Origin: Thermococcus sp.
GTDB taxonomy: Archaea; Methanobacteriota_B; Thermococci; Thermococcales; Thermococcaceae
Assembly: GCF_027052235.1 (NCBI RefSeq)
Contig: NZ_JALUFF010000062.1
Span: 1 to 64,000 of the forward strand
Length of the DNA: 64,000 bases
Direction of reading: 5' to 3'
The translations under genes were made by a program, and so were the position numbers. A model generated the notes under the pieces. That model did no database searches and was not told the DNA's origin. It was given only the letters and a program-made list of their open reading frames with translations. Each line of letters begins with the position of its first letter. Positions within the stretch are counted from its first letter, which is position 1. Shown here one piece after another: positions 13,722 to 55,071 of this stretch.

Positions 13722-14186
13722 TTAGAGGGACTTGTCCTTTTTCTTGGTCTTCTTCATATCCTCAATTCCCTCAAGCAGGCACTCACTGACGCGGAGCCTG
13801 TCGTTGGCATCCAGAAAGAGCGTGAAGTCCCTCTTGGCGAGCCTCTCCTCGACGGGCGCGTGCTCCACGAGGAAGGCTATTATCTCGGCGGTGCTGTAGG
13901 GCACTTTAACCCCGACCTCGTCGGCCCTCTGGAAGAGCCTCTCGGGCACAGTAAAGATGTCCTCTCCACGCCTGACCTCGACTGAGACCTTCGAGTTTAT
14001 CTGCTCCCAGATGAGGAGCGTGTTCCTTGCCTTCTCAATCTTTTCGAGGGCCCTCCGTTCCAGTATGCTGATGTTGGCCCGGCTCGTTCCGAGAAGCTCG
14101 GCTATCTCACTCTGCTTAAGCCCCCTCGCCCTCAGTTTGAGTATCTTAATCTGCTGTTCCGTGAGGAAGCTCTTCACTTTAAACAC
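13722..14186 (-). CDS. Tfx-family DNA-binding protein
   Basis: A 154-residue protein with a basic N-terminal helix-turn-helix (LTEQQIKILKLRARGLKQSEIAELLGTSRANISILE, in parts about 8-42) characteristic of the archaeal Tfx family, followed by a C-terminal domain. The Methanothermobacter Tfx activates the molybdenum formylmethanofuran dehydrogenase promoter; Thermococcales lack that pathway, so the target here differs. The start is GTG 14186, close to the start site predicted from a minus-strand TTTTAATAAC near 14203-14213. It is divergent from the tubulin-like operon and shares its 188-bp intergenic region, which makes that operon a plausible target. Confidence 0.8.
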   Translation of the reverse strand: MFKVKSFLTEQQIKILKLRARGLKQSEIAELLGTSRANISILERRALEKIEKARNTLLIWEQINSKVSVEVRRGEDIFTVPERLFQRADEVGVKVPYSTAEIIAFLVEHAPVEERLAKRDFTLFLDANDRLRVSECLLEGIEDMKKTKKKDKSL

Positions 14187-14299
14187 CTGAGTTTAACAAA
14201 GCGGTAGTTATTAAAAGTTTTATGGGTGCGGTGACTATTCTTGGATGTTATAACCTGGGAACCAATCGATAAGTACTGCCTAAATACTGGTTCAATAAC

Positions 14300-14313
14300 A
14301 CTTAAATATACTA
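14300..14313 (+). promoter_or_regulatory. TATA box of the tubulin/GTPase operon
   Basis: CACTTAAATATACT gives a good archaeal TATA box, predicting a start near 14336 and a leader of about 40 bases before ATG 14375, which has GGAGGGGA. A second TATA-like GCATATAAG lies at about 14339-14347. The region is shared with the divergent Tfx-type gene. Confidence 0.5.
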
Positions 14314-14374
14314 TTAACAAGAATTAGCGTTAGCTGGTGCATATAAGGAATAACATTGACTGGAGGGGAGTGTA

Positions 14375-15463
14375 ATGAAAAGAAGACTGGTTGCAATTGT
14401 GGTCTTTTTTGTGGCCCTTGGACTTCTTTTAAGCCCCGTCAGTGCCCTTACAACCTCGACAAACCCAGAGCTCCCAAGCCAGATTGAGGAGAAGAAGGTT
14501 GTTGACTTTACCCTAGTTATCACGGACATACACGGGACAAAGCTCACCATAATTACAGACCTCAAGCAGGACGGTGCAACTCCAATCTTCGACACCAGCA
14601 ACCTCGGGAACTTCGACGTTAAACTCCAGGGAAACAAGATTGAGATAAGCCCCAAGAGTGGTTCTTTTCCCTCGGTCGTTGAGGTTCACATACACGGCGT
14701 CGTGCCTGAGGGCATAACAACCAAGGTTGTCCAGACCCCAACCAACCAGAGATTATCTCTCAAGTTCTTTGACCTCGGGGAGCACATCTACTACCGCGTA
14801 ACCGACGGCTATGACAGCGAGTCCAAGAACTTCGTCATAATCCACCCCCAGCTTGAGAAGGTCAACTCCATTATAGAGAACAACGTCACCGACCCCAAGG
14901 CTAAGGCGATAGCCAAGGAATACATAGACCTCGGCCTGATTGACTTCGTTGAGAACGACCTCCTCCCTCTCTTCGTCAAGTACGACCCCCAGACAATTGA
15001 AAACCTCCAGAACAAGATAAGCGAGCTCCAGGCGTTGGTTGAACAGCTCAACAGCACCCTCAAGGAGAAGGACAAGAAGATAAGCAACCTCCAGGAACAG
15101 GTAAAGAGCCTGAGCGATGAGAACGGCAAGCTGAAGAGCGAGAACGAGAACCTCAACCAGAGGGTTTCCGACCTGGAGAAGAAGGTCAAAGACCTCCAAG
15201 CACAGCTTGAAGAGGCCAACAGGCTCAAGGCCAGCGCCCAGAAGTCAGCCAAGAACTACCTTATTGCAACGGTAGTTCTCGTGATTCTCGTTGGAGTGGT
15301 TGGTTTTGCCGGTTACCGCTCAGGAAAGTCCACCGGTGTCAGGGAAGCAAAGAGCAAGTGGTACAAGAAGGGTTACGACGAGGGCTACCGCAGGGGAGAG
15401 GAGCATGGCTACGAGCGGTGTATGAGAGAGCGCTCGCGCTCATTGATTGATGAAGGAGAATGA
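14375..15463 (+). CDS. Membrane-anchored coiled-coil envelope protein
   Basis: First gene of the tubulin/GTPase operon; 362 residues, no family recognised. A signal peptide (about 1-25, ending VSALT) is followed by a beta-rich extracellular domain (about 26-170) and a long coiled coil (about 205-290, heptads such as NLQNKISELQALVEQLN). One membrane helix (about 293-313, IATVVLVILVGVVGFAG) leads to a short cytoplasmic tail with repeated aromatic-glycine pairs (KGYDEGY, HGYERC). The layout suggests a stalk that projects outside and a tail able to contact a cytoplasmic partner, for which the tubulin-like protein 11 bases downstream is the obvious candidate. That contact is inferred. Confidence 0.8.
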   Translation: MKRRLVAIVVFFVALGLLLSPVSALTTSTNPELPSQIEEKKVVDFTLVITDIHGTKLTIITDLKQDGATPIFDTSNLGNFDVKLQGNKIEISPKSGSFPSVVEVHIHGVVPEGITTKVVQTPTNQRLSLKFFDLGEHIYYRVTDGYDSESKNFVIIHPQLEKVNSIIENNVTDPKAKAIAKEYIDLGLIDFVENDLLPLFVKYDPQTIENLQNKISELQALVEQLNSTLKEKDKKISNLQEQVKSLSDENGKLKSENENLNQRVSDLEKKVKDLQAQLEEANRLKASAQKSAKNYLIATVVLVILVGVVGFAGYRSGKSTGVREAKSKWYKKGYDEGYRRGEEHGYERCMRERSRSLIDEGE

Positions 15464-15474
15464 GGTGATTTGGG

Positions 15475-18400
15475 ATGGTCGAGCTTCGGGTCTTCCCCGA
15501 TGTTATTATGGGAATTGGTGGCGCTGGCAAAAACTTGGTCTTCCAGATGCTCCGCACTGAGTGGCTCGTCAGGGCCCTGCTGGAGAACTCGGAGAAGAAG
15601 TACACCTTCATAATCCTCGACACAGCCGTCGGGGAGATGAAGGACGACCTCGCCCACAAGGAGGAGATAGACGCCTTCATTGAAAAAATCGCCGAGGAGA
15701 TGAACAAGCCGAAAAACATAGACGTTGAGGTCAGGAACATCATTCAGGACCTCCACATCGACACCCCGAGGGTGCTCTACACCAAGAACCTCATAGACGA
15801 GCTCCACAGGAAGAAACTCGTTAAGGTCTGGTGGATACTCGACAAGAAGCACGGAGTTGACAACACAGAGGCCCTCCAGAAGTACGGAAGCTCGGGCTTC
15901 TCGAAGGGAACCATCAGGAGAAGGGGCGTTACCAAGGCAATGTTCTACAAGGCCCTCGTCGAGGGCAGGGTGGACGAGATATTCAGCATAAAGCCCGGCG
16001 CCCAGGAGATTGCAATGGTCGTCGGACTCGGCGGTGGCACCGGTTCGGGAATATTCATAGACCTTGCCCAGAGGATAAGGGACTCCAATCCGGGTGTTAC
16101 TATAACTCTCTTCGGAATCCTCCCGTCCCTTGAGGAGGGCGAGGAGAAGGCAAACGCCTACATAGCCCTTTCGGAGCTTGAGTATCTGAGACTCACCCAG
16201 GGGAAGTTCGGGGAAGTCCTCTTCAATCACGTGGTGCTCTCAACAATTCAGCCGACCCGCTTTAGGGGCTCGGACGATGCGTACGCCAAGAACATTGCCC
16301 TTCAGGAGTTCTCCGAGGCCTTCGTTTACACCTTCGTGAACTTCTACGACGCCAAGAGCGGAAACCAATCCGATGAAATCGAGCCGAACCACTACGGAAG
16401 GTTCACCCTCATGACCTCTGGCATTGTCAGGTACGAGGTCGAGAGCACGGTCTCCAACAAGAAAGACCTTGATGAGGCCGTTACAGCCTTCACAAAGGCC
16501 CTGAAGGTCGAGGAGGACATAAGGGAGAAGGACATAGAGGGAATAATAGGTCTCCTGAAGGAGGCGGAGATGATAGAGCCGAGCGGTGGAGATGGAAGCT
16601 TCTACAGCAGGTATCTCGACTATATAAAGAACACCCGCCTCATTCAGGAATTCTATGGTTTCCTGACGAACCCAGTTTTGATGGCCTTCAACTACAACTC
16701 TCCCAAGGCAGTTATGGACGAGATAAACACCCGCATTCTGATGGGCGACCAGAAATTCTCGGACGTCGTCAACGGACTTAAGACCCCCGAGGAGATACTG
16801 GACTTCATAAACCAGCTCAAGACAGCCATAGAGAGCGCCAAGACGGACTTCAGGGATGACGTTGACAAGAAGATATACGAGACCTTTGTGAAGATACTCG
16901 ATAACATCCACCTTTCGATAGAACAGCTGGCGGTTCTCCACAGGTTCAGGTTCCCGGAGAACCTTAAGAAGAGCTATGAACCCTACGAGACCGAAATAGG
17001 AACAGCCCTCCGTGACCTTGCGACCTTCGAGGCGAAGCCCGTTGTCCTCAACAGGATAGACGACCTGAGGAGGGCCGTTGGCAACGACATAGCATCAAGG
17101 GAACGTAGGCTTAGCGAAATCGAGGAGGAGCTCAAAGCCCTCGAAAAGGAGAAGGCCAAGATAGAGAACGACGTCGAGGAGATAATAGAAATCAACACAA
17201 AGCTCCTCAGGAACTACTATCGCTTCATCAAGGACCTTCCCGAGATAGAGGGCCTGATCAGGGAAGCTTCAAGGAAAATACAGCGCGTCCTCGATGACCT
17301 TAAGACCCACGCCCTCGGGGACATCGACAAGAACCTTGAGCCGGAGATGTTAGCCCGCCAAGTTTCGGAGGATATGGAGTCTGCCCTTGAGGGTCTGAAG
17401 AACCTCGTTACAAAGCTTGAGGCCATCTTCCCGGGCAACCCGGAGGTTCTCACCCTGAAAGACCTTATCGATTACATAGACCTCATCAAGGAGACTCTGC
17501 TCAACTACTACGGATACAGGTATTACGAATGGAGACAGGAGAACAGGTCGCTTGGGGAGAGGCTCAGGGGTAAGGATTACAGCGTCGAGATGGAGGACTA
17601 CCTCGACAGATACGAGAAGGCCTACAGCAGGGTCTCCCGCAGAAAGGAGCTCTCCAGCTTCATAAGGATAAGGCCCGGTGCCGAGCCGAACACGATTTCC
17701 AACGTTGAGATAAACAGGCTCGATGAGAGCATCTGGATTATCATCAAAAAGCTTAGGGATTCAATACAGGACAGCATAACCGCCAAGATTGGAAAGCGCC
17801 TCAACGTTGACCTCAAGGATATTCAGCTAGACAAGGTGGCCAGTGAGAGTAAATCGCAGCAGGAGTTCATAAGCAAGGCGAAGAACGCCATATACGAGGC
17901 CATTCTGGCAAAGACCGGAGTTGGTTCCAAGCTCAATGAGCTCATTGAGGAGAAAAAGAAGCTTGAGGCTGAGATTGAAGAGCTCTCGAAGTTCCAGGGA
18001 CTTCTTGGTACCCTAAGGGAGAGGATAGTTGACGTTAGGTCGAGGCTCCAGAAGGAGTGGAAGGAGTACAAGAACAGGTACGACGAGACCATGAAGAAGC
18101 TCAAGAAATACCTGGAAAAGACCAGCTCAAGGAGAAACGAGAAGGGGACGTTCATCTACAAGGTTCAGCCCTCCCCGGAGGCCCTTGGCCTGCTGATGGA
18201 TGCCTCGGAGGGCAGTCTGGCGAAGATACTCCAGAATCCAAGCCTGAACACAATCTCCCAGAACGAGTTCAACAAGATACTCAACACCTTCCGCGAGCTC
18301 CTCCAGACCCTCATAATTCCGGAGTACTCAGGTGTTGACAAGTACAGGCGCATAGTGGAAGGCGAGGACGGTATCCCAATCGAATGGAAGCTCAAGAGCG

Positions 18401-18855
18401 TTCTCAGCTACATAAACTCGCCGGTGAACGAGAACACGGGTGAGGTCACGGAGAAGCTCAGGGAGGTCGTCATGGAAACCCTGGAGCGCACGGTCAAGCC
18501 CAGAAAGGTAGTTCCGACCGGCATGCCCGCGAGGGGCTCTCCATGGGACATCGCCATAACCATAATCTTCCCGAAGGTCTTCCTTGAGGACATCTACGGC
18601 CTCTACCAGAAGAACAACAGCTATTACGACGAGTACTACTCCCTCAATCAGTCAGGCAAGAAGAGGGAAATCTTCCACCACGTTTACAAACTTGAGGATG
18701 GCTGGTACATCGCGAGGGAACCGATGGACTTTGACGAGGCGATCATCCTTGCCTCAGACGAGCAGTACAACAACAGGGACGTCAGCGAGGAGATTCTCAA
18801 TAAGTACTACATAAAACACAACGTGGCCAACAAGGGGCCGGAGGGGAGTGAATGA
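15475..18855 (+). CDS. Giant tubulin-like GTPase domain protein (Tubulin_2 type)
   Basis: A 1126-residue cytoplasmic protein. The N-terminal region has a nucleotide-binding GIGGAGKN near residue 13 and the tubulin/FtsZ signature GGGTGSG at about 186-192 (preceded by VVGLG), so it belongs to the tubulin superfamily and resembles Pfam Tubulin_2. From about residue 480 the chain turns into long helices and coiled coil (for example RRLSEIEEELKALEKEK, ELIEEKKKLEAEIEELSK), ending in a mixed region (about 980-1126). This is more than twice the size of FtsZ, CetZ or tubulin. It lies between an envelope coiled-coil gene and a membrane GTPase gene, and its stop overlaps the next ATG (ATGA). Filament formation is inferred from the fold. 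It has no signal peptide or membrane helix. Confidence 0.85.
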   Translation: MVELRVFPDVIMGIGGAGKNLVFQMLRTEWLVRALLENSEKKYTFIILDTAVGEMKDDLAHKEEIDAFIEKIAEEMNKPKNIDVEVRNIIQDLHIDTPRVLYTKNLIDELHRKKLVKVWWILDKKHGVDNTEALQKYGSSGFSKGTIRRRGVTKAMFYKALVEGRVDEIFSIKPGAQEIAMVVGLGGGTGSGIFIDLAQRIRDSNPGVTITLFGILPSLEEGEEKANAYIALSELEYLRLTQGKFGEVLFNHVVLSTIQPTRFRGSDDAYAKNIALQEFSEAFVYTFVNFYDAKSGNQSDEIEPNHYGRFTLMTSGIVRYEVESTVSNKKDLDEAVTAFTKALKVEEDIREKDIEGIIGLLKEAEMIEPSGGDGSFYSRYLDYIKNTRLIQEFYGFLTNPVLMAFNYNSPKAVMDEINTRILMGDQKFSDVVNGLKTPEEILDFINQLKTAIESAKTDFRDDVDKKIYETFVKILDNIHLSIEQLAVLHRFRFPENLKKSYEPYETEIGTALRDLATFEAKPVVLNRIDDLRRAVGNDIASRERRLSEIEEELKALEKEKAKIENDVEEIIEINTKLLRNYYRFIKDLPEIEGLIREASRKIQRVLDDLKTHALGDIDKNLEPEMLARQVSEDMESALEGLKNLVTKLEAIFPGNPEVLTLKDLIDYIDLIKETLLNYYGYRYYEWRQENRSLGERLRGKDYSVEMEDYLDRYEKAYSRVSRRKELSSFIRIRPGAEPNTISNVEINRLDESIWIIIKKLRDSIQDSITAKIGKRLNVDLKDIQLDKVASESKSQQEFISKAKNAIYEAILAKTGVGSKLNELIEEKKKLEAEIEELSKFQGLLGTLRERIVDVRSRLQKEWKEYKNRYDETMKKLKKYLEKTSSRRNEKGTFIYKVQPSPEALGLLMDASEGSLAKILQNPSLNTISQNEFNKILNTFRELLQTLIIPEYSGVDKYRRIVEGEDGIPIEWKLKSVLSYINSPVNENTGEVTEKLREVVMETLERTVKPRKVVPTGMPARGSPWDIAITIIFPKVFLEDIYGLYQKNNSYYDEYYSLNQSGKKREIFHHVYKLEDGWYIAREPMDFDEAIILASDEQYNNRDVSEEILNKYYIKHNVANKGPEGSE

Positions 18856-20633
18856 GGCTCCCGAGGTCCCTTGAGTCCTTTGGCCTACTGCCCTTTCTCT
18901 TTTACACCCTTCTCGGTTTTGTGTTCTATTTGCTCATAAAATACACCGCCACCTCAACGAACCTGTTGAACGACCTCAACGTCATAACCGGGAGCTGGCT
19001 CTTCCTCTCACTTGCCGGCCTCAGCTTCGGCATAGTCACTGTAACCGCGTTGACAAGGTTCACGCCCTACTCAAGAAAGACGTGGGGGCTTCTCATTGGG
19101 GGTCTCGTCCCACTGATTGATGCCCACTGGGGGGAGGTTCCCCTTCTCGCACCTCTGGTGCTGGGCCTCCTCCTCGGCCTAGCGTTCATAACCCGACAGG
19201 AAAGACAGCTCAAGTGGGCCAAGGCCTTCGCCCCGCTCCCTCTCTTCGTGCTTCTTATCCCGCCGACCTCAGAGGCCGTCCTTGAGTTTCAAAAGGGGAC
19301 GTATACCCAGCACTTTGGAAAGATTCTTGGCTACCTTGGCATAATCATCCTCGTTCTGGTTGAGGCATACTTCATTCATGCGACGGCCAGGCACGCCCTC
19401 CGGGACGAGGACACCTCCGAGGAGGTCACGATATTCCTCGGTCCGAGGCAAAGCGGAAAGACGATACTCTCCCTCGGGTTTTACTACACCCTGGTCACCA
19501 AGAGGAAGGGAACCCACGAGGACTCCTTCGTGATAAGCGAGGAGGGGACCCCACTTGACCTCGCCGAGCTGTACAGCATCTTCAGGCGCATGGGCTTTCA
19601 AGGGGTTAAGGGCACCCAGAAGGGCTGGCTCACGATACACACCTTCAGAATAAAGAGGGGTGGAGGTAAGAAGTTCCTTCATGGCCTAAAGGACGTGGAG
19701 CTTGAGATAACGGACTACGCCGGTGAGATTCTGTGGGATCTTGAGGAGATAGTCAGAGACACCAAGAAGTACGACGACCTCGTAAAGGCTGTGGAACAGG
19801 ACATAGAGGCCGACATGGAGCGGTTTAAGGAGGCGATAAGATACAGGAAGAACGTTCCCGATGAGAAGAAGGACGCCATAGCCGAGGAGATAAAGAGAAA
19901 GATAATCCACGACTTGGAAAGGATGCGCTTCGACTTCAGGAACTACAGGAGGGAAATCTACTGGGAAAAGGTTCCCGAAAGCATTAGGGACAAGCTGGCC
20001 GTTGCCCACACCCTCAGCAGTCTGATGAGGGCCGATAAGGTAGTTCCACTCCTGGACGGAGAGGGAATACTCTACGAGCTCTATCAGCGCGACAGGGAAG
20101 CTAGGGAGGCCCTCAACGACATGAAGAACTACAACCCAACCCTCTACGAGGTCATAATGAACGCAATCAGAAAGTTCGAAAGAGCAAACCAGGCCCTTGA
20201 GTCATCCCTCCAAGCGAGGAGGGCCACACTTGAGGCCCAGCTCAGGGCCTACGATGCCATCCTTTCAAGGTTCAAGAAACGCAACAGGCGCGGTGACTTT
20301 GCCTTCCTGGTCACAAAGGCCGACCTCATAGGGGCAATCTTCATGCCATTCCTCCTGAACATCAGCCTCTCGGGAGTTAAGAAGAGGATAATAAACCTCC
20401 TCAAGAGCACCACTGCCTTCCTAAACCTCCTTCAGAAACTCGTCCCCGAAAAGGAACTGAAGAAGAGGATAATACTGTCCATAATCCTCTCGCCAGCAGA
20501 CCTCAAGCACCTCGATCCCGAGTCGGCAGAAGACCTCAGGGAGGAAGTCCTGGTCAGGGGACTCGATGAGCTCGTTGAGTGGCTGAGGACAACGCCCATT
20601 ATCAGGGTTCTGAAGGAGGTGCTGCTCCCGTGA
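18852..20633 (+). CDS. Membrane-anchored P-loop GTPase-like protein
   Basis: A 593-residue protein with about five or six N-terminal membrane helices (residues 10-180) and a cytoplasmic nucleotide-binding domain. Visible motifs are a Walker A GPRQSGKT (about 197-204), a switch-like DYAGE (about 288-292, position of GTPase DxxG) and TKAD (about 487-490, position of the guanine-specificity NKxD). A long helical insert (about 300-470) separates the last two. The set points to a TRAFAC/double-GTPase-like fold rather than an ATPase, but this is by eye. The ATG overlaps the stop of the tubulin-like gene, and its TGA overlaps the GTG of the next gene, so the three are translationally coupled. Confidence 0.75.
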   Translation: MRLPRSLESFGLLPFLFYTLLGFVFYLLIKYTATSTNLLNDLNVITGSWLFLSLAGLSFGIVTVTALTRFTPYSRKTWGLLIGGLVPLIDAHWGEVPLLAPLVLGLLLGLAFITRQERQLKWAKAFAPLPLFVLLIPPTSEAVLEFQKGTYTQHFGKILGYLGIIILVLVEAYFIHATARHALRDEDTSEEVTIFLGPRQSGKTILSLGFYYTLVTKRKGTHEDSFVISEEGTPLDLAELYSIFRRMGFQGVKGTQKGWLTIHTFRIKRGGGKKFLHGLKDVELEITDYAGEILWDLEEIVRDTKKYDDLVKAVEQDIEADMERFKEAIRYRKNVPDEKKDAIAEEIKRKIIHDLERMRFDFRNYRREIYWEKVPESIRDKLAVAHTLSSLMRADKVVPLLDGEGILYELYQRDREAREALNDMKNYNPTLYEVIMNAIRKFERANQALESSLQARRATLEAQLRAYDAILSRFKKRNRRGDFAFLVTKADLIGAIFMPFLLNISLSGVKKRIINLLKSTTAFLNLLQKLVPEKELKKRIILSIILSPADLKHLDPESAEDLREEVLVRGLDELVEWLRTTPIIRVLKEVLLP

Positions 20634-21325
20634 TAGGGCTTGGAATCTACACCACCGAGGGCGTTCCCCTCTACCTCCATGGAAACCAGCCACTGGCATC
20701 TTCCCTCGTCCCCTTCATCGACAAGTACGGTCTCTGGGTCGCTTACTTTCCGGCAATTGAGAGGGGGGAGCTTCTCTGCTACATCGGGGCCAGGTTTGAC
20801 AACGTGAAGGAGAGCCCAATAGGTCGATTGAACAGGGAGGTACTGCTCCTAAGCTTCTCCGGCCAAGAGAAAGGAGATTTCGAAACTGCACTGAGGGTCT
20901 TCATGCCCGAGAACCTTCAAAAGATATTCAGGGAGGCTGGCCTCTACTTCGAGCAGGAACCCGTCGGGGAGCCGAATGTTTCCCAGGATTCTATAGTGAG
21001 GGTCTATAGGGAGGTAAGGAGCTATCTCAGGGAGCTCTCTTCGGAAGTGCCTTCCTCGATATCCAAAATCCCCTACAGAAAAGTCACAGTTCCGGGTATT
21101 ACGGATACTCCCTATCCATCACTTTACCAGCGTTACCTCTTCTTGGGGACGGTATTGGAGGCAATTAAGGGGCTCTCAACGAAGTCCTGCATTCCACACT
21201 TTATAGAAAACGCCCTTCGTAGCGATTATTCCCGAGGGGGGGACTTTGGATACCCCTTTGTGGTTTACTCAAAGGGGACCGTGCCCTCTCTCGGTGGCCT
21301 GTGGTTCCCAACCGGAGGGATGTAA
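20630..21325 (+). CDS. Soluble operon protein, paralogous to the N-terminus of the next gene
   Basis: A 231-residue protein without signal or membrane segment; family not recognised. I start it at GTG 20630 because that codon overlaps the preceding stop (GTGA) and has GGAGGTG upstream. Residues before it belong to the previous gene. Its opening IGLGIYTTEGVPLY and its ending VYSKGTVPSLGGLWF match the pattern of the next protein (VAIYDTQGILV and VFSKGSSAKYPGLWM). Both therefore seem to carry the same roughly 200-residue domain, possibly a longin/roadblock-like regulator of the neighbouring GTPase. The fold guess is inference. Confidence 0.7.
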   Translation: MIGLGIYTTEGVPLYLHGNQPLASSLVPFIDKYGLWVAYFPAIERGELLCYIGARFDNVKESPIGRLNREVLLLSFSGQEKGDFETALRVFMPENLQKIFREAGLYFEQEPVGEPNVSQDSIVRVYREVRSYLRELSSEVPSSISKIPYRKVTVPGITDTPYPSLYQRYLFLGTVLEAIKGLSTKSCIPHFIENALRSDYSRGGDFGYPFVVYSKGTVPSLGGLWFPTGGM

Positions 21326-23344
21326 ATGGGTGAGATTCCCGTTGCCATATACGATACCCAGGGCATACTCGTCTCGGGGGGAGGAGTGAACTTTGAGGAA
21401 CTAGGGATAAGCTACGGTGATATGGACTCCCTTGGCGTCTGGCTTGCCCTGAGAAGGGGTGAAGATTTCGTCGTTGGGATGCGCATCGACCATCTTTACG
21501 AGAACAGGGGGCTTGGACGGGATAACCGTTATCTAGTCCTCATTAAGTTCCCCGCGGAGAAGTTCCCCTCCTTCGTCGAGAGGTTCCAGGATCTAATGAA
21601 AAAACTCATAGCGGACTTCGAGGAAAGCAACAACGTCGCCTATAAGGGCGAATTCGGCGAAAAGCCCTATTTGAATCCTGCTGTTGCAGAGAAGATAGCA
21701 ACGCTCGTTGAAAAGCTCCCGAAATACGATGAGGAGACCCTCAGAAAGTACGGGCTCGCGAAGGACAGGCTCAGGGTTCGGGTTGAGGGTCTGAACTACG
21801 ATGACCCGAGTATTGGAGACCGCGCAGCGGCTCTGGAGCTGATTCAGAGGATACTTTACACTGCCCCGGAGAGCCCGATAACCGAACTCCTTGTTTTCTC
21901 CAAGGGGAGCTCGGCCAAGTATCCCGGCCTGTGGATGGAGAAGGATGCCAAGCCCCCAGAGGAGATTCTCTCTGCCCTTGAAGGCGAGTTTGAAAGGCTT
22001 AAAGAGCTCTATGAAGAGTGCGACAGGGAGCGTCTCAGATACCAAAGAGACCTCGAAAAATGCAGGGATGACCTTGAGAGCTCGAAGGCCGAGGCTAGAC
22101 GGTACAGGAGACTCTACGAGAGTAGCTCCAAGGGAATAGCGCGTCCAATAGTGGCGGGAATCTCAATAATCCTCCTCCTCGCGGGGCTCTTTGCGGGTGC
22201 CTACCTCCACTCCTCAGGGGTGATGCCCCTTCTCCCGAAACCGGCCAAGGTTATTCCTCCAGCGGACAATGGATATCTCAAGGCGAACTCCGGTCTTAAG
22301 GGCGAACCGGCGAAGGTCATTGGTGGCTACATAAAGTTCATCAAGGAAGCGAAGAACGGACGGGTTGACCTGGCGTATCTCTCTTCCCTAGTGGTCAACG
22401 ACAGCAAACTTCACCGTGAGTGCCTGGCAAATCAGAGCAAGCTTAAGGATGAAACCAAAAAGCTCACCGCCCGGGTCAATACTCTGGAGAATGAACTGAA
22501 GAAGGCGAACAGCACAATCTTAGCCTTAAGGGAAGAGAAGAATAAGCTGAAGTCCCAACTCGATGGGTTCAGCAAGGACACAAAGTGCTTCTCGACCCTA
22601 GTTGGCCCTAACGTGACCCTCACAGAGGACGACCTCCAGACACTCAGTAAAGAACCCGGAATCGGTGGCTGGGAGAAAGTAATGACCGGCCACTGCAGAG
22701 CCAAGCTCAACGAGATGCGTGAAAACCTTCACAGCGAGTCAGTCCACTTCCAGAACGTATTAAATGACTCCCTCAATGACCTCAGACAGGCCCAGAAAGT
22801 CTCTATGAAAATACTGCTCAACCCCATCAGCGAGCCGGTAAAGGGCTACATGATAAACTTTACCAGGGCAATTAACGCCAGCATTGAGGAGACCATGCTC
22901 ATTGAAAGGATAACCCAAAATCACACCGAGAAGCTCAAGAGTTTCAACGTCTCCTCCGTCAAATCCTGTTCGGGGGCCTGTAAGGTAATGGGAGAATGGA
23001 CGGCGGAGCAGGGAAGAATAAAACGTGCCCTTGAGAAGAACTTCACAAAAATCCCGGCGGTCGTCGTTATGGAAGACCTCCAAGAGCTTTACAACACCAA
23101 CAAGACCATCAGCGACCCCGGGAAGCTCAATACCCTCAACGTCTCGGCGTACACCAAGGGGCTTTTGGGCTACGTCCTAAACCTCCCTGCGAACGTGGCC
23201 CTAACCCCCAAGGACTTCTGGAGGGAAGTTGGCAACCTGACCGGTGACCTCAGCGGAGTAGGGAAGCCCGAGGATGTCCGTCTCTATCTGGAAAGGCTCC
23301 TGAAACTCCTTGAGTTCATAGACAGCAAGGTGGAGGCGAGCTGA
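21326..23344 (+). CDS. Bitopic protein linking a cytoplasmic domain to an extracellular coiled coil
   Basis: A 672-residue protein of unknown family. The N-terminal domain (about 1-215) is related to the preceding protein. A short coiled coil follows (about 215-265), then one membrane helix (about 272-292, PIVAGISIILLLAGLFAGAYL). A large outer part (about 300-672) contains another coiled coil (VNTLENELKKANSTILALREEKNKLK in parts) and many N-glycosylation sequons (NDS, NST, NVT, NHT, NKT). There is no cleavable signal; the topology is inferred as inside N-terminus and outside C-terminus. It begins one base after the previous stop, and the next gene begins one base after its own stop. It may couple the cytoplasmic machinery to the surface. 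Confidence 0.78.
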   Translation: MGEIPVAIYDTQGILVSGGGVNFEELGISYGDMDSLGVWLALRRGEDFVVGMRIDHLYENRGLGRDNRYLVLIKFPAEKFPSFVERFQDLMKKLIADFEESNNVAYKGEFGEKPYLNPAVAEKIATLVEKLPKYDEETLRKYGLAKDRLRVRVEGLNYDDPSIGDRAAALELIQRILYTAPESPITELLVFSKGSSAKYPGLWMEKDAKPPEEILSALEGEFERLKELYEECDRERLRYQRDLEKCRDDLESSKAEARRYRRLYESSSKGIARPIVAGISIILLLAGLFAGAYLHSSGVMPLLPKPAKVIPPADNGYLKANSGLKGEPAKVIGGYIKFIKEAKNGRVDLAYLSSLVVNDSKLHRECLANQSKLKDETKKLTARVNTLENELKKANSTILALREEKNKLKSQLDGFSKDTKCFSTLVGPNVTLTEDDLQTLSKEPGIGGWEKVMTGHCRAKLNEMRENLHSESVHFQNVLNDSLNDLRQAQKVSMKILLNPISEPVKGYMINFTRAINASIEETMLIERITQNHTEKLKSFNVSSVKSCSGACKVMGEWTAEQGRIKRALEKNFTKIPAVVVMEDLQELYNTNKTISDPGKLNTLNVSAYTKGLLGYVLNLPANVALTPKDFWREVGNLTGDLSGVGKPEDVRLYLERLLKLLEFIDSKVEAS

Positions 23345-25435
23345 ATGAGGAAGGTATGGGCCCTGCTCATTATCGCCTTCCTCGGGTTTGAACTGTGGGC
23401 AGGGATTAGCGTTCCCTGGGTTTCGGCCAGTAGCCTGCGCTCCGCGACCCTGAACCTCGTTGTCGGCGAGACCTACGAGTACAACTACTTCAACCTGACC
23501 CTCGTTGATATGAACCCGGTGAGCGGAACGGTGCTCGTCAACGTCTCGGGGATTCAGGGGAGCGAGCTGGTCACCGCTGAGGACGCCTTCACTGACGTCT
23601 TTGGCGACGGGACGATACAGATAAGGGCCGTTGCGGTCTATGTGAGCAACAAGCAGGCAACCGTTGAGGTTCGGGTTGACGTCGAAGCCCTGGCCAACGT
23701 CGCCTGTTCGCTACTTGAGTCCCTCATCTCGGAGGCAGAAGCCAACGGCACCCTGCCGGAGTCGGTGTTAAACCAGTCGAGACAGAGCCTGACGCTGGCA
23801 CAGCAGTACAGGGATTCCGGCTGGTACGACGATGCAATCCAGACCGCATGGAGGGCCCTTGACAACCTCAGGAGCACGATAAAGATAGCTACAGAGGCCA
23901 GGAAGGCCATAATAGACGCCAAAAAGGCCGTAACCGACCCCTCCACCTGCGTCTCAGGATGCAAGGAGTGTCCCCTTTCCATAACGGTGAAGGTGAAGAA
24001 GCTCATAAGCGAGGCCGAGGATTACTACCAGCAGGGGAACTTTGAGGATGCCCTCCAGACGGCCAACAGTGCAATCAACATGATAAAGGACTGCTGTAAC
24101 TCGTGTAAGGTCTTTCCCGAGAGGAAAAAAGAACTGGAGGATTACCTGGCCGAGAAGGAGAAGACAATACCCTCGGAGCTCTTCAAAGCTGTAAGGGACA
24201 AAATAGACACCGCCCAAAAGTACTACGACAACGGTGACTGCGTTGACGCCATAAGTTACCTCGACGATGCCAAGGAAGTTGCGGAGACTATAGTCGAGAA
24301 GTGGGATGAGACTATGACCTGCAGGGCAAGCCTCCTCTCAAACATAACCCGGGCAGGGAAGAGGTATTACACGATTTTCAACAGCACCGTGATAAGGATA
24401 AAGGTTGACGACCTTGAGAAGAGCGCCAGAGAAGACCTCTACAAGCTCATAACCTCGGGCTACTTCCAGACTGCACTCTCGAAGTGCAGCAAACTCGCGG
24501 ACGACCTGAAAGCTAGGGAGGAAAAGTTCAACGAGACCAAAGCCGTTCTCGGCGATGTTTGGGAGCATATAACGGGGGTTAAGGCCGAGGGCTACGTCGT
24601 GAACCCGGCCGTCTCCATTTTCGTTGAGGGGCTCAATCTCATGGAGCAGGGCAACTACGAGGGGGCCAAGGCAAAGTTCCTTGAGGCCAATCAGACCGCC
24701 AACGAAATCGTGCTCAAGGCCATTGAGGCGAAGAAGGCCAAGAACGAAACGCTCAGTTGCCTGACCAAGCTGAAGGCCGAGGGTATAGACACCCAGAGCG
24801 TCTTCGGAGAGGACATGTCCCGTGCTGAGGAACTCTATAAGAAAGGAGACTACGAGGGGGCAAAACTCCAGTGGGAGAGCATCAAGGAGAAGTGCAACGA
24901 CCCAGAACTGGAGACCGTGATAGAGACGAGGAACGAAGCCCATTCCCTCTACGACAAGACCAGAGCCGAGGGGATAAAGATACCCGGAGATGTGGACAAC
25001 CTAATAGAGCAGGCGGACAGGAGCTTCCGGGACGGGGACTTCACCCTTGCCAAGGAGGAATACAACGGGGTAATCAAGAAGCTTAATGAGCTAAAGGACA
25101 TTGAAGAGGATTATCAGAAAACCTCCGAACAAGCCGAGAAGTTCTATGAACAGAGCTCAAAGTGGGGCAAAACCATTGCCAAGTGGTTTGGAATTCCCGT
25201 GGTCGAGGAAAGGTTTGAGAAAATCAAGGAACTCCGTGAGAAAATCCAGAAAGACCAGGAGAGCGGAAATTACACGGCCCTGAAGAAAGACCTGGCGGAG
25301 TTAAAGGGCTTGATGAATGACATAGACGGAGACAACTCCAAGAACTGGGACGACCCGCTTCCCTACGTTCCGAACTACTACTTGATAGGCCTCCTGTTTT
25401 CAATCCTGATGATGTTCTTCAACCTCGTCAGGTGA
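23345..25435 (+). CDS. Secreted TPR-like repeat protein with C-terminal membrane anchor
   Basis: Last gene of the operon; 696 residues. A signal peptide (about 1-29, ending VSASS) is followed by a beta domain and then a long helical region with repeated TPR-like units (for example AEDYYQQGNFEDALQTANSA, AQKYYDNGDCVDAISYLDDA). Cysteine pairs (CVSGCKEC, CCNSCK) could form disulfides outside the cell. A C-terminal membrane helix (YYLIGLLFSILMMFFNLV) ends the protein, so it is anchored with the repeats outside. The family is not recognised. A T-rich stretch (about 25436-25452) right after the stop probably ends the operon's transcript. Confidence 0.78.
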   Translation: MRKVWALLIIAFLGFELWAGISVPWVSASSLRSATLNLVVGETYEYNYFNLTLVDMNPVSGTVLVNVSGIQGSELVTAEDAFTDVFGDGTIQIRAVAVYVSNKQATVEVRVDVEALANVACSLLESLISEAEANGTLPESVLNQSRQSLTLAQQYRDSGWYDDAIQTAWRALDNLRSTIKIATEARKAIIDAKKAVTDPSTCVSGCKECPLSITVKVKKLISEAEDYYQQGNFEDALQTANSAINMIKDCCNSCKVFPERKKELEDYLAEKEKTIPSELFKAVRDKIDTAQKYYDNGDCVDAISYLDDAKEVAETIVEKWDETMTCRASLLSNITRAGKRYYTIFNSTVIRIKVDDLEKSAREDLYKLITSGYFQTALSKCSKLADDLKAREEKFNETKAVLGDVWEHITGVKAEGYVVNPAVSIFVEGLNLMEQGNYEGAKAKFLEANQTANEIVLKAIEAKKAKNETLSCLTKLKAEGIDTQSVFGEDMSRAEELYKKGDYEGAKLQWESIKEKCNDPELETVIETRNEAHSLYDKTRAEGIKIPGDVDNLIEQADRSFRDGDFTLAKEEYNGVIKKLNELKDIEEDYQKTSEQAEKFYEQSSKWGKTIAKWFGIPVVEERFEKIKELREKIQKDQESGNYTALKKDLAELKGLMNDIDGDNSKNWDDPLPYVPNYYLIGLLFSILMMFFNLVR

Positions 25436-25456
25436 TTCTTTTAACTTTTTTAATGA
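25436..25456 (+). terminator. T-rich terminator of the tubulin/GTPase operon
   Basis: TTCTTTTAACTTTTTTAATG follows the stop of the last operon gene. Archaeal transcription commonly ends at such T runs. The next 160 bases to the tRNA-His gene hold no gene I can support. Confidence 0.5.
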
Positions 25457-25619: not shown

Positions 25620-25697
25620 TGGGGCCGGGGCCGGGATTTGAACCCGGGCTAGGGGATCCACAGTCCCCTGTGCTGACCAGGCTACACCACCCCGGCC
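25620..25697 (-). tRNA. tRNA-His (anticodon GTG)
   Basis: On the minus strand the acceptor stem is GCCGGGG/CCCCGGC with an encoded extra G at position -1 (25697) opposite discriminator C73 and CCA at the 3' end. These are the identity features of tRNA-His. The anticodon stem GGGGA/TCCCC carries the loop CTGTGGA, giving GTG. The T arm is CCGGG/CCCGG around TTCAAAT. Its promoter TATA lies at about 25725-25732. Confidence 0.95.
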
Positions 25698-27564: not shown

Positions 27565-27640
27565 AGCCCCGTGGTGTAGCGGCCAAGCATGCGGGACTCT
27601 GGATCCCGCGACCGGGGTTCGAATCCCCGCGGGGCTACCA
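27565..27640 (+). tRNA. tRNA-Gln (anticodon CTG)
   Basis: Acceptor stem AGCCCCG (27565-27571) pairs with CGGGGCT (27630-27636), with discriminator A and CCA at 27638-27640. The anticodon stem GCGGGA/TCCCGC carries CTCTGGA, giving CTG. The T arm is CGGGG/CCCCG around TTCGAAT. The promoter TATA is TTTATAAA at about 27529-27536. It is divergent from tRNA-Arg. Confidence 0.95.
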
Positions 27641-27720: not shown

Positions 27721-27860
27721 CCCCGCCCTAAAGGACGGGGTTTCCGTCGGGGAAACCCCTCGCTAATGGCGGGGAGGTTTGAGGGGTAATCCTCACCACT
27801 CCCATTGAAGGGGGTTCGGAGAACCCCTCTGGCCGGGCCTCCGGCCAGTTACCCCCACCT
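27721..27860 (-). ncRNA. Probable TnpB omega-RNA / right-end hairpins
   Basis: The end of tnpB carries tandem hairpins typical of an IS605-family right end: CCCCGCCC-TAAA-GGACGGGG (27721-27740; one G-U pair in the minus-strand RNA) and TTTCC-GTCGG-GGAAA (27741-27755). In TnpB systems the 3' end of the gene overlaps a guide scaffold whose target-matching guide lies just beyond the right end, here below 27721. The inner boundary near 27860 is approximate. Confidence 0.5.
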
Positions 27861-29068
27861 GCCGACAAACCCGGCAGGCTCAGGGTTATCTTTTCCACAA
27901 CCTTCCTCAAAATGTTGAAAGCACCAACCACGTCGGCATTCATAACAACGCCCTCTCTACGGCACTTAAACAAACCCCTAAAGATTCTCCCATCAGCGTG
28001 GCGTTGGCCGCAGAGAGGGCAAAACTGAGAAGTGAAAGCCTCATTCACGACTTCAACCTCGATACCATACTCTTCAGAGACTTCCTTTAAGCGTTTAATG
28101 ACAGTATTGAACCGCCAGACGTGAGAGAGGAGGAAATTCTGCTTTTTACCCCTGTCAGAGTTTCTGGCGATTCCTTTCGGGTAACCAACGAGGATCCTCG
28201 AAACTCCGAGATGGTAAAGCTTTTCGACAGTCTGCCTTACTGCCGTGTTGATGTAGTGTTTGGCTTGGAGCTTGGCTTTTTCGTGCATTCTTTTGAGTTT
28301 CCTGCTTGTTTTGACTCCACTCCTGTTGAGTTTTGACTGATAATCCGCAATTCGTTTTTGCCAGTAAAAATCAATGCTCTTTAAGGGTCTCCCATTGACT
28401 AAGAAACTCTCGCCGTTCTCAACGTAAACGGCCATTAAATTGTTCACTCCTAAATCAATTCCAGCTGAAAGGTTTCCTTTTGGTGTTCTTGGGAGTTTAA
28501 CCCACTCGCCCTTCTCCATCTTCTCCTCAACTTTGGAGAAGCTGATGCAAACATACCACTTGCGTTTAACATCATCGTAGATTATCTCTAACCGCCCTTG
28601 CTTGCCCTTGAGGTAGATCCGCCCCTTGAATTGAATCCTCAATCTCCCAAACTTTCCAAGTCTTCGCAGTTCGATAACATTCCCGTCAATCTTGTATTGG
28701 TCATTTCGGAGTGGGATAATGAACAGTTTCTTTCCGTTCTCCTCCCTGACAAAGCCGGGCGGTTTTGGCCTGAACCATTCTGGAAGTTCTCCATTCTTTT
28801 TCTTCCTGTTGAGGGCGAAGAATGAACGCCAGCTTTCGGCGTTCTTTCTCGCCAACTGCTGGACTGTTGAACCACCAATCCAGTTTTTGAACTCGTGGTA
28901 AGCTTCCTTTTCTGTTCCGTTAAAATCAATCCTGCCGAATTCTTTGAATTGTCTCAAGCGTTGGTAATTGAGTTTGTTCCAGATTACTGCGGTGGCTTGG
29001 GCTAACTCGGAGAGTGCTTTTTCCTGCTCCTTGCTCGGCTGGAGTTTGATGGTTACTGAGCGCTTCAT
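27728..29068 (-). CDS. tnpB: TnpB (IS200/IS605-type RNA-guided nuclease)
   Basis: A 446-residue TnpB/OrfB protein, a reprogrammable omega-RNA-guided DNA endonuclease in the family. The RuvC-like triad is visible as GIDLGVNN (Asp), VNEAFTSQFCPLCG (Glu) and MNADVVGAFNI (Asp). The zinc-finger region keeps CPLC but the second pair is altered: the order is FKCRREGVVMNAD, so one cysteine of the usual CxxC appears to be missing. No tnpA transposase accompanies it, as in IS1341-like elements. The long C-terminus (from about 395) runs into the structured right end. GGTGATG-like signals are weak before ATG 29068. Confidence 0.93.
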   Translation of the reverse strand: MKRSVTIKLQPSKEQEKALSELAQATAVIWNKLNYQRLRQFKEFGRIDFNGTEKEAYHEFKNWIGGSTVQQLARKNAESWRSFFALNRKKKNGELPEWFRPKPPGFVREENGKKLFIIPLRNDQYKIDGNVIELRRLGKFGRLRIQFKGRIYLKGKQGRLEIIYDDVKRKWYVCISFSKVEEKMEKGEWVKLPRTPKGNLSAGIDLGVNNLMAVYVENGESFLVNGRPLKSIDFYWQKRIADYQSKLNRSGVKTSRKLKRMHEKAKLQAKHYINTAVRQTVEKLYHLGVSRILVGYPKGIARNSDRGKKQNFLLSHVWRFNTVIKRLKEVSEEYGIEVEVVNEAFTSQFCPLCGQRHADGRIFRGLFKCRREGVVMNADVVGAFNILRKVVEKITLSLPGLSAGGGNWPEARPEGFSEPPSMGVVRITPQTSPPLARGFPDGNPVL

Positions 29069-30120: not shown

Positions 30121-30714
30121 TTGAGAAAGAATATTGCCTTGGGAATTTTTGGTCTGCTGGTGGCCTTTGGGCTCGTTCTTGGGGCCGGAGCCAACTTCAG
30201 GGACTACAACGCGGACAGGAGCGTACATTGGGAGGTAGTTACCGATGACACCGAGCTCATCGACCTGACCCCAATCCAGCCCTACGCGTACATTAACGAC
30301 GGCGGTGTCCTCGTGGTGGACATCAGCCCTGAGAACCCGAACTGGCCGGGCTATGGAAACGGCCTCAGCCCGAACTCAGAGTACAACTTCGACGAGGTGT
30401 TTGAGGTTAGCAACGACCTCTGGGAGGAGAACATGAGCATAGTCGTGAGGATTACAAGCGACAATCCTGTGATTCAGTTCTACGGGGCTGACCACGACAT
30501 CCACGACAGCGCTACAGGGGCTGTTGTGTACGCGAGCGACATGGCCAAGAACGACGTCTGCTTTGTCGTGAACAACGGCGACGCGGTTAAGGTCGGCATG
30601 GACTTCACCGTCGGCAACGACGCGCCCAACACGACCCAGAGTGCGTCAGTTCACATAGAGGCCTACAGGCTCGGCACGGAGCCGGCAGACCTGAGCGGAA
30701 AGTGCGGTCAGTGA
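30121..30714 (+). CDS. TasA/DUF1102-like secreted fibre subunit 1
   Basis: A 197-residue secreted beta-rich protein. Signal peptide about 1-24 (ending LGAGA), then a mature start NFRDYNADRSVHWEVV. This resembles DUF1102/TasA-like proteins that form bundling pili in archaea, in which the N-terminal strand of one subunit completes the sheet of the next. The start codon is TTG 30121, with AAGGAGGCG upstream; the unusual start and the hairpin over the ribosome binding site both suggest controlled translation. Two cysteines (near 140 and 195) could form a disulfide. A near-identical motif set begins the next gene. Fibre formation is inferred from the family. Confidence 0.68.
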   Translation: MRKNIALGIFGLLVAFGLVLGAGANFRDYNADRSVHWEVVTDDTELIDLTPIQPYAYINDGGVLVVDISPENPNWPGYGNGLSPNSEYNFDEVFEVSNDLWEENMSIVVRITSDNPVIQFYGADHDIHDSATGAVVYASDMAKNDVCFVVNNGDAVKVGMDFTVGNDAPNTTQSASVHIEAYRLGTEPADLSGKCGQ

Positions 30715-30728
30715 AGGGGGCGTGAAGG

Positions 30729-31265
30729 ATGAACAAACTATTCGGATTGGCAATACTCATGATTGGAATGCTCCTGGCAGTCGGGGCGGGCGCGAACTTC
30801 CGCTACTACTCCGCGGACAGGACTGCGAGCTTCGATGTCGTGTCTGACGACAACGAGCTGATTGATTTGACCGCCCTGCAACCCTACGTCACCTACGACG
30901 CCGGAAAACTCTACGTGGACATAAGCCAGTACAACCCCAACCATCCCAACTGGGGAGGGAACGGCATGAGCCCTAACACCACCTACGTCTTCGAGGAGAT
31001 GTTCGAAGTCAGCAACGAGCTCTGGGAGAACAATGCAACCGACTACCCGATATGTGTGACCATAAAGAGCCAGCACAACGGTGTACTACTCTTCGCAGGC
31101 AACTACACCAGCCCAATAGCCGGCCCGGCCAACAACCTGCAGTTCACCGTCTACAACGGGAACCCGATTCCGGTTGGCATGATCTTCAACAACACCAACT
31201 CGACCCTTGGCAGCTACCAGTTCCAGATGAGCTTTGAGGCAGTGGCCGGAACCTGCGGGCCGTGA
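30729..31265 (+). CDS. TasA/DUF1102-like secreted fibre subunit 2
   Basis: A 178-residue paralogue of the preceding protein: signal peptide ending AVGAGA, then NFRYYSADRTASFDVVSDDNELIDLT. It shares the pattern ELIDLT-x-LQPY, the YNPNHPNW block and VSNELWE with subunit 1, and ends in a cysteine-containing tail (AGTCGP). N-glycosylation sequons (NAT, NYT, NNT, NST) are frequent. It starts 14 bases after subunit 1 with GGGGGCGTGAAGG upstream, so the pair is co-transcribed. Duplicate subunits suggest major and minor components of one fibre, or a heteropolymer (inference). Confidence 0.68.
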   Translation: MNKLFGLAILMIGMLLAVGAGANFRYYSADRTASFDVVSDDNELIDLTALQPYVTYDAGKLYVDISQYNPNHPNWGGNGMSPNTTYVFEEMFEVSNELWENNATDYPICVTIKSQHNGVLLFAGNYTSPIAGPANNLQFTVYNGNPIPVGMIFNNTNSTLGSYQFQMSFEAVAGTCGP

Positions 31266-31309
31266 TTTCCTTTCGGGGCCTTTGCCCCAAAATTTGAGAG
31301 GGTTTGCCG

Positions 31310-32371: not shown

Positions 32372-32372
32372 T

Positions 32373-45781: not shown

Positions 45782-46393
45782 ATGAGACTTTTAAGGAAGC
45801 GCGGTCAGATATCGCTGGAGTTCCTCTTGGTGTTTGGGATACTCCTTATTATGCTCCTCTATTCAGCCCGTTCAATGACCTTCAATAACACCTCGTCCAG
45901 AGAGGCTCTTTTGATGCAGGTGGCAGTTGAGGAGAAAAGCACGGCAAATATCATAGCTAGTGCTATTGATCAAGTTTATGCCCAGGGTCCTGGATCCAAG
46001 GTGACTGTTTACGCCCATTTCACTCTTCTTAGAAACGGGGACTACCTGAAGAAGGCTTTTAATCTGACCTCTCCTGTTATTAATATAATCCTTGCGGGGG
46101 AAAACGATCCACTGTTCCCCGCTGGGGCCAGCAATTCTATAGTGGCTGTGGCTGTTTCCAATCAGGGTAATGAGCCGATTATATCAGGTTCGAACAGAAC
46201 CGGTGTATGGGTCCAGACCTTTCTGAAGTACAATGCAACGTCACATACTCGATTTGAGGTAAACTTCACGCCTTCCACCCTTCCTCCGGTGATGAAAGTT
46301 GTTGTGGAATGGAACCCCGCCCAGCCCATCTCCTTGGTTTATAACTCAACGAGTTCCACCTTACATATCAACATCAGGGTGAAGGGATCATGA
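45782..46393 (+). CDS. Class III signal (pilin-like) protein 1
   Basis: A 203-residue protein with a class III prepilin signal: basic start MRLLRKRG, cleavage site before Q, then QISLEFLLVFGILL, which fits the QxSxExxxL consensus of archaeal pilins cut by EppA-type peptidase. The rest is a beta-rich outer domain with several N-glycosylation sequons (NNT, NAT, NFT, NST). Membrane retention of the hydrophobic helix allows assembly into a pilus-like core. It is first in the seven-gene cluster and overlaps the next gene by 4 bases. Confidence 0.78.
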   Translation: MRLLRKRGQISLEFLLVFGILLIMLLYSARSMTFNNTSSREALLMQVAVEEKSTANIIASAIDQVYAQGPGSKVTVYAHFTLLRNGDYLKKAFNLTSPVINIILAGENDPLFPAGASNSIVAVAVSNQGNEPIISGSNRTGVWVQTFLKYNATSHTRFEVNFTPSTLPPVMKVVVEWNPAQPISLVYNSTSSTLHINIRVKGS

Positions 46394-55066: not shown

Positions 55067-55071
55067 GTACA

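What the first reader, a model, noticed from the sequence alone, without database searches (positions are those of the whole stretch)
14375..25435. Six-gene operon: giant tubulin-like protein, membrane GTPase-like protein and envelope coiled-coil proteins
The genes are packed with ATGA/GTGA or one-base junctions and read as one transcript. A 1126-residue tubulin-superfamily protein (GGGTGSG at about 186-192) is encoded between an anchored coiled-coil protein and a membrane protein with GTPase motifs. Three further proteins extend the set, two of them with large outer domains. Tubulin_2-type proteins and membrane or double GTPases are reported in some bacterial gene neighbourhoods, but I know no described archaeal machine of this make-up. 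The layout suggests a transmembrane device in which a filament in the cytoplasm is coupled to surface stalks.
Basis: partly seen in the sequence, partly recalled or inferred. Interest (0 to 1): 0.92.

Follow-up and report, generated by a model that had tools for sequence, protein, structure and literature searches.

The report
Archaeal tubulin-like membrane GTPase operon
A hyperthermophilic archaeon carries a rare six-gene operon that pairs a giant tubulin-like protein with a membrane GTPase and surface-exposed helical proteins; it belongs to a family predicted from genomes in 2010 whose function has, as far as I could find, never been tested.

Summary
Six tightly packed + strand genes at 14375-25435 encode: a membrane-anchored coiled-coil protein, a 1126-residue tubulin-superfamily protein (Pfam Tubulin_2 and Tubulin above cut-off), a polytopic GTPase (GPRQSGKT, TDYAGE, TKAD), a small cytoplasmic protein, a one-TM protein carrying a related cytoplasmic module plus a sequon-rich outer domain, and a secreted C-anchored helical-repeat protein. 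The order recurs in only 3 other Thermococcaceae genomes (4 of 94), at several different sites, so this is an accessory module. One carrier is almost certainly Pyrococcus abyssi GE5. Plasmids of haloarchaea and Methanohalobium carry the core tubulin - membrane GTPase - partner. This is the FtsZl1 family of Makarova & Koonin (2010), which already includes P. abyssi and a membrane GTPase in archaea, so the claim that no such archaeal machine is described is wrong. New here: the thermococcal gene set and topology, the paired partner modules of genes 4 and 5, the archaeal plasmid core, and placement in a tRNA-His locus that holds restriction-modification genes in related genomes. Best reading: a transmembrane, GTPase-switched polymer device. 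Whether it serves conflict/defence or membrane remodelling is undecided.

The parts
14375..15463 (+). Gene 1: 362 aa, signal peptide/N-terminal hydrophobic segment (5-23), outer domain, coiled coil (about 205-293), TM 295-313, basic cytoplasmic tail
   Evidence: same layout in G038, G063 and G004
15475..18855 (+). Gene 2: 1126 aa FtsZl1/Tubulin_2 protein: N-terminal tubulin-like domain (GGGTGSG 186-192), coiled-coil stretches (about 530-620, 810-890), C-terminal domain with the conserved motif FHHVYKLEDGWYI
18852..20633 (+). Gene 3: 593 aa polytopic membrane GTPase; N-terminal TM bundle (about residues 1-175), G1 GPRQSGKT, G3 TDYAGE, G4 TKAD
   Evidence: motif residues invariant or nearly so in 10 archaeal homologues
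20630..21325 (+). Gene 4: 231 aa soluble protein, no TM; partner module paralogous to the N-terminus of gene 5
21326..23344 (+). Gene 5: 672 aa; cytoplasmic module (1-235), TM 275-293, outer coiled-coil domain with 13 N-x-S/T sequons
23345..25435 (+). Gene 6: 696 aa; signal peptide, helical/TPR-like repeats (FIMAH, TPR_2 hits), C-terminal TM anchor 677-695
14295..14372 (+). Probable promoter (TTAAATATA-like TATA box near 14302) and Shine-Dalgarno GGAGGGG (about 14363)
   Evidence: sequence read directly; inference
25436..25456 (+). Oligo-T tract after the last stop, probable archaeal terminator
   Evidence: inference
25620..25696 (-). tRNA-His bordering the module; the operon side of this tRNA is variable between genomes and holds restriction-modification genes in relatives

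Best explanation
This is an accessory (sporadically present, relocating) operon of the FtsZl1 / Tubulin_2 family. Its six products most likely form one membrane-spanning device. Shown by sequence: gene 2 is a tubulin-superfamily protein without TM segments; gene 3 is a polytopic membrane protein with GTPase motifs; gene 4 and the gene 5 N-terminus are related modules predicted to be cytoplasmic; genes 1, 5 and 6 are predicted to place large coiled-coil or helical domains outside the membrane. Inferred mechanism: the outer domains engage the S-layer or an incoming ligand; gene 5 carries that state across the membrane to its cytoplasmic module; that module and its paralogue gene 4 set the nucleotide state of the GTPase (as roadblock or longin partners do for small GTPases); the GTPase recruits gene 2 and controls its GTP-dependent assembly on the inner face of the membrane. 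The output is probably a conditional local change in the membrane or cell surface, not routine division, because most relatives lack the operon and the genome keeps its normal FtsZ genes and CetZ.
For: Six-gene order conserved in four genomes; tubulin-GTPase-partner core conserved on plasmids of Methanohalobium, Halorubrum and Natrialbaceae, and in Haloplanus with a second, degenerate GTPase between. Pfam Tubulin_2/Tubulin hits; profile match to archaeal FtsZ over T4-T5 (E about 1e-6); Foldseek top 50 hits of the N-terminal model all TubZ, FtsZ, CetZ or tubulin. G1, G3 and G4 motifs kept in 10 GTPases. In gene 5 all 13 sequons lie beyond the TM (p=0.001), a bias repeated in G038, G004 and Halorubrum. 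Genes 4 and 5 related. Presence in 4 of 94 genomes, different sites. The genome also has other FtsZ genes and a CetZ.
Against: No biochemical or genetic data. Polymerisation not shown and the T7 region is not conserved. The AlphaFold model of gene 4 failed (pLDDT 36), so the partner-module fold is unknown and its GTPase-regulator role rests on gene position. Homology of the haloarchaeal third gene to genes 4/5 is weak (hhalign E=0.066). Direct interaction of the six products is assumed from gene order.
Confidence: 0.55

Rival explanations
1. Conflict/defence system: the operon is an archaeal relative of the DO-GTPase-GAP1-tubulin systems (Kaur et al. 2020). Outer or cytoplasmic domains sense an invader, the GTPase is the threshold switch, and tubulin assembly at the membrane is the effector.
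For: Sporadic presence and relocation. The same DUF2139-Tfx / tRNA-His locus holds DNA methyltransferases in G013, and the tRNA-His side holds a Type IIG RM gene, a KwaB-like gene and an EVE gene in G032. Operon proteins are only 23-63% identical to those of the G063 carrier, while the neighbouring Tyw3 and lipoate-ligase-like genes are about 79% identical. The Methanohalobium homologue of gene 3 has DO-GTPase2 as its only Pfam hit (E=0.026). Haloplanus and Halorubrum copies lie near Hsp70, GrpE and vWA genes.
Against: No PADLOC match beyond coiled coils. DO-GTPase2 cut-off not met by the members tested and no GAP1 or FNIII domain found. A shared insertion hot spot is weak evidence. Horizontal transfer between distant lineages would give the same divergence.
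Confidence: 0.35
2. Membrane-remodelling or vesicle device: GTP-dependent tubulin assembly, anchored by the membrane GTPase and outer coiled coils, bends the membrane (the original FtsZl1 prediction).
For: Predicted for FtsZl1 by Makarova & Koonin, who cite DNA-containing vesicles in some Thermococci; TM and outer components in the loci examined.
Against: By established knowledge vesicles are common in Thermococcales, yet only 4 of 94 genomes carry the operon. FtsZl1 lacks a recognisable T7 region.
Confidence: 0.35
3. Surface-organelle base: genes 1, 5 and 6 form stalks organised by a cytoplasmic tubulin scaffold, acting in adhesion or transport.
For: Coiled-coil and helical outer domains; a pilin-like gene lies upstream of the Methanohalobium tubulin.
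Against: No subunit in the operon resembles a pilin or other polymerising surface protein. Coiled-coil length in gene 1 is not conserved (287 aa in G004 against 362 here).
Confidence: 0.15

Closest known systems
FtsZl1 family and its operons (Makarova & Koonin 2010, PMC2875224)
   Same: N-terminal FtsZ-like domain with GGGTGSG, alignable only to about H5; central coiled coil; long C-terminal domain; adjacent diverged GTPase, membrane-associated in archaea; many membrane or secreted partners; Pyrococcus abyssi GE5 among the species listed
   Different: No vWA, kinase or OmpA gene in the thermococcal operons; two paralogous partner modules (genes 4 and 5). Whether their Additional Files list these exact genes could not be read here
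DO-GTPase / GAP1-N2 / tubulin conflict systems (Kaur et al. 2020, PMC7159879)
   Same: GTPase with a glutamate in the Walker B region (DYAGE), TM segments in some members, third 'partner' protein encoded next to the GTPase, tubulin with C-terminal helical or coiled-coil part
   Different: GTPase and partner do not reach the DO-GTPase2 or GAP1 models; no FNIII protein; a text search of the paper for Thermococci, euryarchaea and haloarchaea found nothing
CetZ / FtsZ / TubZ
   Same: Tubulin-superfamily NTP domain
   Different: 1126 aa with a different C-terminal part; no FtsZ_C or CetZ_C hit; canonical FtsZ genes and CetZ exist separately in this genome
SRP receptor beta subunit (Ras-like membrane GTPase)
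   Same: Best PDB sequence hit of the thermococcal gene 3 profile (E=0.019, not significant); membrane GTPase
   Different: Only the P-loop region matches; the analogy with a longin-domain partner is a lead, not a test

Membership tests
FtsZl1 (Tubulin_2, PF13809) | N-terminal tubulin/FtsZ-like NTP-binding domain with GGGTG(S/T)G | tested here: met
   PF13809 49 bits (cut-off 27), PF00091 35.7 bits (cut-off 33); GGGTGSG invariant in 9 archaeal homologues; Foldseek hits to TubZ/FtsZ/CetZ from a low-confidence model
FtsZl1 (Tubulin_2, PF13809) | Homology to FtsZ alignable only to about helix H5; T6-H7 not recognisable | tested here: met
   hhalign with 13 FtsZ proteins stops at residue about 236; T7-like motif not conserved
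FtsZl1 (Tubulin_2, PF13809) | Extended coiled coil followed by a mostly helical C-terminal domain | tested here: inconclusive
   Coiled-coil-type Pfam hits at about 530-620 and 810-890; secondary structure of the C-terminal domain not computed
FtsZl1 (Tubulin_2, PF13809) | Adjacent diverged P-loop GTPase, membrane-associated in archaea | tested here: met
   Gene 3: TM bundle, GPRQSGKT/TDYAGE/TKAD, conserved in 10 homologues
FtsZl1 (Tubulin_2, PF13809) | vWA-domain gene in the operon (in the majority, not all) | tested here: not met
   No vWA hit in the six proteins. A frequent feature in the paper, not a defining one; vWA genes lie near the Haloplanus and Halorubrum copies
DO-GTPase / GAP1 conflict system | GTPase reaching the DO-GTPase2 model cut-off | tested here: not met
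   No hit for gene 3 at E<=1; Methanohalobium homologue 14.6 bits against a cut-off of 27; no match over the cut-off in 115 genomes of the phylum
DO-GTPase / GAP1 conflict system | Glutamate in the Walker B motif | tested here: met
   DYAGE/DYPGE, glutamate nearly invariant; a shared residue, not proof of membership
DO-GTPase / GAP1 conflict system | GAP1 protein next to the GTPase | tested here: not met
   Genes 4/5 and plasmid counterparts have no GAP1 hit, although they occupy the same gene position
DO-GTPase / GAP1 conflict system | Anti-invader activity | not testable with these tools
   needs an infection or plasmid-transfer assay
CetZ / FtsZ | FtsZ_C or CetZ_C domain and conserved T7 catalytic loop | tested here: not met
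   Only NTP-domain Pfam hits; T7 not conserved

The most novel reading that the evidence does not exclude
A mobile archaeal immunity or envelope-surveillance machine in which a transmembrane sensor with a new GTPase-regulating module (genes 4 and 5) switches a membrane GTPase that triggers assembly of a giant tubulin at the site of attack: a tubulin cytoskeleton used as a defence effector.
Probability: 0.2. Interest if true: 0.9.

Novelty: new member of a known kind. Interest (0 to 1): 0.45.

Why it matters
Tubulin_2/FtsZl1 proteins occur in many bacteria and archaea, and I found no experimental study of their function in the papers searched. This thermococcal operon is compact (six genes, no shared partner pathway) and from a hyperthermophile whose proteins should purify well, so it offers a minimal set for reconstitution. 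Whether these systems remodel membranes (the 2010 prediction) or defend the cell (the 2020 prediction for related bacterial sets) could be settled with it or with the haloarchaeal plasmid copies.

Tried and rejected
AlphaFold of gene 4 with a two-sequence alignment gave pLDDT 36 and was not used. The tubulin N-terminal model had mean pLDDT 46, so its Foldseek hits are supportive only; TM-scores are low (0.22-0.45). A PDB sequence search with the gene 4/5 module found nothing. The RecA hits of the broad GTPase profile are P-loop repeats with no single stretch passing the limit, and were ignored. Viral contigs hold no relatives by the patterns used; the genome-contig scan found only the G063 MAG. 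DO-GTPase2 matches in all 115 genomes at E<=1 are generic P-loop noise, none over the cut-off. PADLOC and NCBIfam hits are coiled-coil noise. No direct or inverted repeats bound the operon, so an att-bounded integrated element was rejected. Sigma-70 and terminator scans are near chance level and not apt for archaea.

Full report
Observation. The six ORFs are real and packed as stated. Gene 4 starts at GTG 20630, giving a GTGA overlap with gene 3. Genes 2/3 overlap by ATGA, and genes 4/5 and 5/6 abut. The gene before the operon (13722-14186, a TFX-type DNA-binding protein) and the tRNA-His after it (25620-25696) are on the other strand, and an oligo-T tract follows the last stop. One transcript is therefore likely, but not shown.

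Proteins. Gene 2 matches Pfam Tubulin_2 (49 bits, cut-off 27) and Tubulin (35.7 bits, cut-off 33). Its profile aligns with 13 FtsZ proteins from this genome and its relatives over T4-T5 (E about 1e-6) and no further. An AlphaFold model of residues 1-466 is poor overall (mean pLDDT 46), yet its 50 best PDB matches are all TubZ, FtsZ, CetZ or tubulin, E from 2e-4. Gene 3 has an N-terminal TM bundle, then G1 GPRQSGKT, G3 TDYAGE and G4 TKAD; these residues are invariant or nearly so in ten archaeal homologues. Genes 4 and 5 share a module of about 230 residues (28% identity; BLAST of gene 4 to the G038 gene 5, E=1.6e-5). Gene 5 adds one TM and an outer domain: all 13 N-x-S/T sequons lie beyond the TM (Fisher p=0.001), and the bias recurs in G038 (p=0.01), G004 (p=7e-5) and Halorubrum (p=0.003), though not significantly in G063 or Methanohalobium. 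Genes 1 and 6 have N-terminal signal-like segments and C-terminal TM segments in all four genomes.

Distribution. Only 4 of 94 genomes of the family carry the tubulin, and no further genome among the 115 of the phylum gives more than short low-scoring matches. All four carry the six genes in the same order (in G063 they are split over two contigs; in G004 genes 4 and 5 are recognised by weak or positional similarity). In this genome and G063 the operon sits next to tRNA-His/Tyw3; in G038 it lies by tRNA-Ala; in G004 elsewhere. The tRNA-His/Tyw3 side is constant in the relatives read, but beyond it the content varies. In G013, between the same DUF2139-Tfx pair and tRNA-His, there are two DNA methyltransferases; in G032 a Type IIG restriction enzyme, a KwaB-like protein and an EVE-domain protein. 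G004's main contig is 1,765,118 bases, which from memory is the length of the Pyrococcus abyssi GE5 chromosome.

Wider relatives. Plasmids of Methanohalobium, Haloplanus, Halorubrum and a Natrialbaceae archaeon carry a tubulin of this kind, followed by a membrane GTPase and then a protein that starts with a short module resembling the N-terminus of genes 4/5 and, in most, continues into a TM and outer or other domains. In Haloplanus a second membrane protein without a recognisable P-loop lies between tubulin and GTPase. In Halomicrobium and Halobaculum the GTPase and following gene occur without an adjacent tubulin. The module similarity across these lineages is weak by profile (E=0.066); position carries most of the argument. 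The Methanohalobium GTPase has a single Pfam hit, DO-GTPase2, below its cut-off.

Known systems. Makarova & Koonin (PMC2875224) described FtsZl1: FtsZ-like N-terminus alignable to H5 only, coiled coil, helical C-terminus, and operons with a diverged GTPase that is membrane-associated in archaea; P. abyssi GE5 is among the species listed. They predicted membrane remodelling, and a referee preferred transport or signalling. Kaur et al. (PMC7159879) described bacterial DO-GTPase-GAP1 systems, about half of the GAP1-N2 type with tubulins, as conflict systems. The window operon meets the FtsZl1 criteria tested (except the non-universal vWA gene; helicity of the C-terminal domain was not computed). 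It does not meet the DO-GTPase2 or GAP1 models, though its plan is alike: tubulin, GTPase, partner protein beside the GTPase. So it is filed under FtsZl1 and said only to resemble the conflict systems.

Mechanism. Shown: sequence motifs, predicted topology, conserved order, sporadic presence. Inferred: the outer domains sense or hold something at the surface; gene 5 transmits across the membrane; the two cytoplasmic modules set the GTPase state; the GTPase controls gene 2 assembly. The strand-helix order of the module as I read it by eye (strand-strand-helix-three strands-helix) would suit a longin-like fold, but the structure prediction failed and a PDB search found nothing, so this is only a lead. 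A housekeeping division role is unlikely, since the genome has canonical FtsZ genes and a CetZ and most relatives lack the operon. Defence and remodelling are rated about equally. The defence-type neighbourhood, mobility and fast divergence (23-63% in the operon against about 79% in two flanking genes of the same pair of genomes) favour conflict but are also what horizontal spread would give.

Verdict. A real, conserved, rare operon; a new member of an already predicted family. It is interesting as a compact test case, not as an unknown kind of system.

Noticed in passing
window 43968-45122 (+): A CetZ gene (PF00091 107 bits, CetZ_C 59 bits) lies 18 kb downstream of the operon, so this window holds two tubulin-superfamily genes of different branches.
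   Followed up: partly
window 45782-55830 (+): Run of genes starting with class-III-signal-like (pilin-type) N-termini, several very large (694, 698 and 1217 aa), ending in a DUF2101 membrane protein; G+C drops to 0.45 here against about 0.54 around it. One gives a weak Bactofilin hit and one DUF2341. Looks like a surface/pilus island.
   Followed up: no
window 30121-33296 (+): Two DUF1102 secreted proteins, a signal-peptidase-like gene and a further secreted protein in one run; from memory this resembles camelysin/TasA-type surface fibre loci.
   Followed up: no
window 27728-29068 (-): IS605-family TnpB-like gene (OrfB_IS605, Cas12f1-like TNB) next to tRNA-Gln (27565-27640), without an adjacent TnpA among the ORFs read.
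   Followed up: no
L065 4840-7397; L066 1196-7370; L069 3074-3496: The tRNA-His/Tyw3 locus is a defence-type hot spot in Thermococcaceae: DNA methyltransferases, a Type IIG enzyme, a KwaB-like gene and EVE-domain genes in genomes without the operon.
   Followed up: partly
L031 8947-11769 and L033 8587-11365: Haloarchaeal plasmids carry the membrane GTPase and its partner without an adjacent tubulin, near M48 metalloproteases and an ATP-binding protein on both plasmids; possibly a related system with another effector.
   Followed up: partly
L028 17356-18831: Haloplanus has a second polytopic protein between tubulin and GTPase that looks like a degenerate GTPase without a P-loop, echoing the paired GTPases of DO-GTPase systems.
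   Followed up: partly
L030 13926-17299: The tubulin gene of the Natrialbaceae CCL63 plasmid is broken into two ORFs (13926-15209 and 15767-17299).
   Followed up: no
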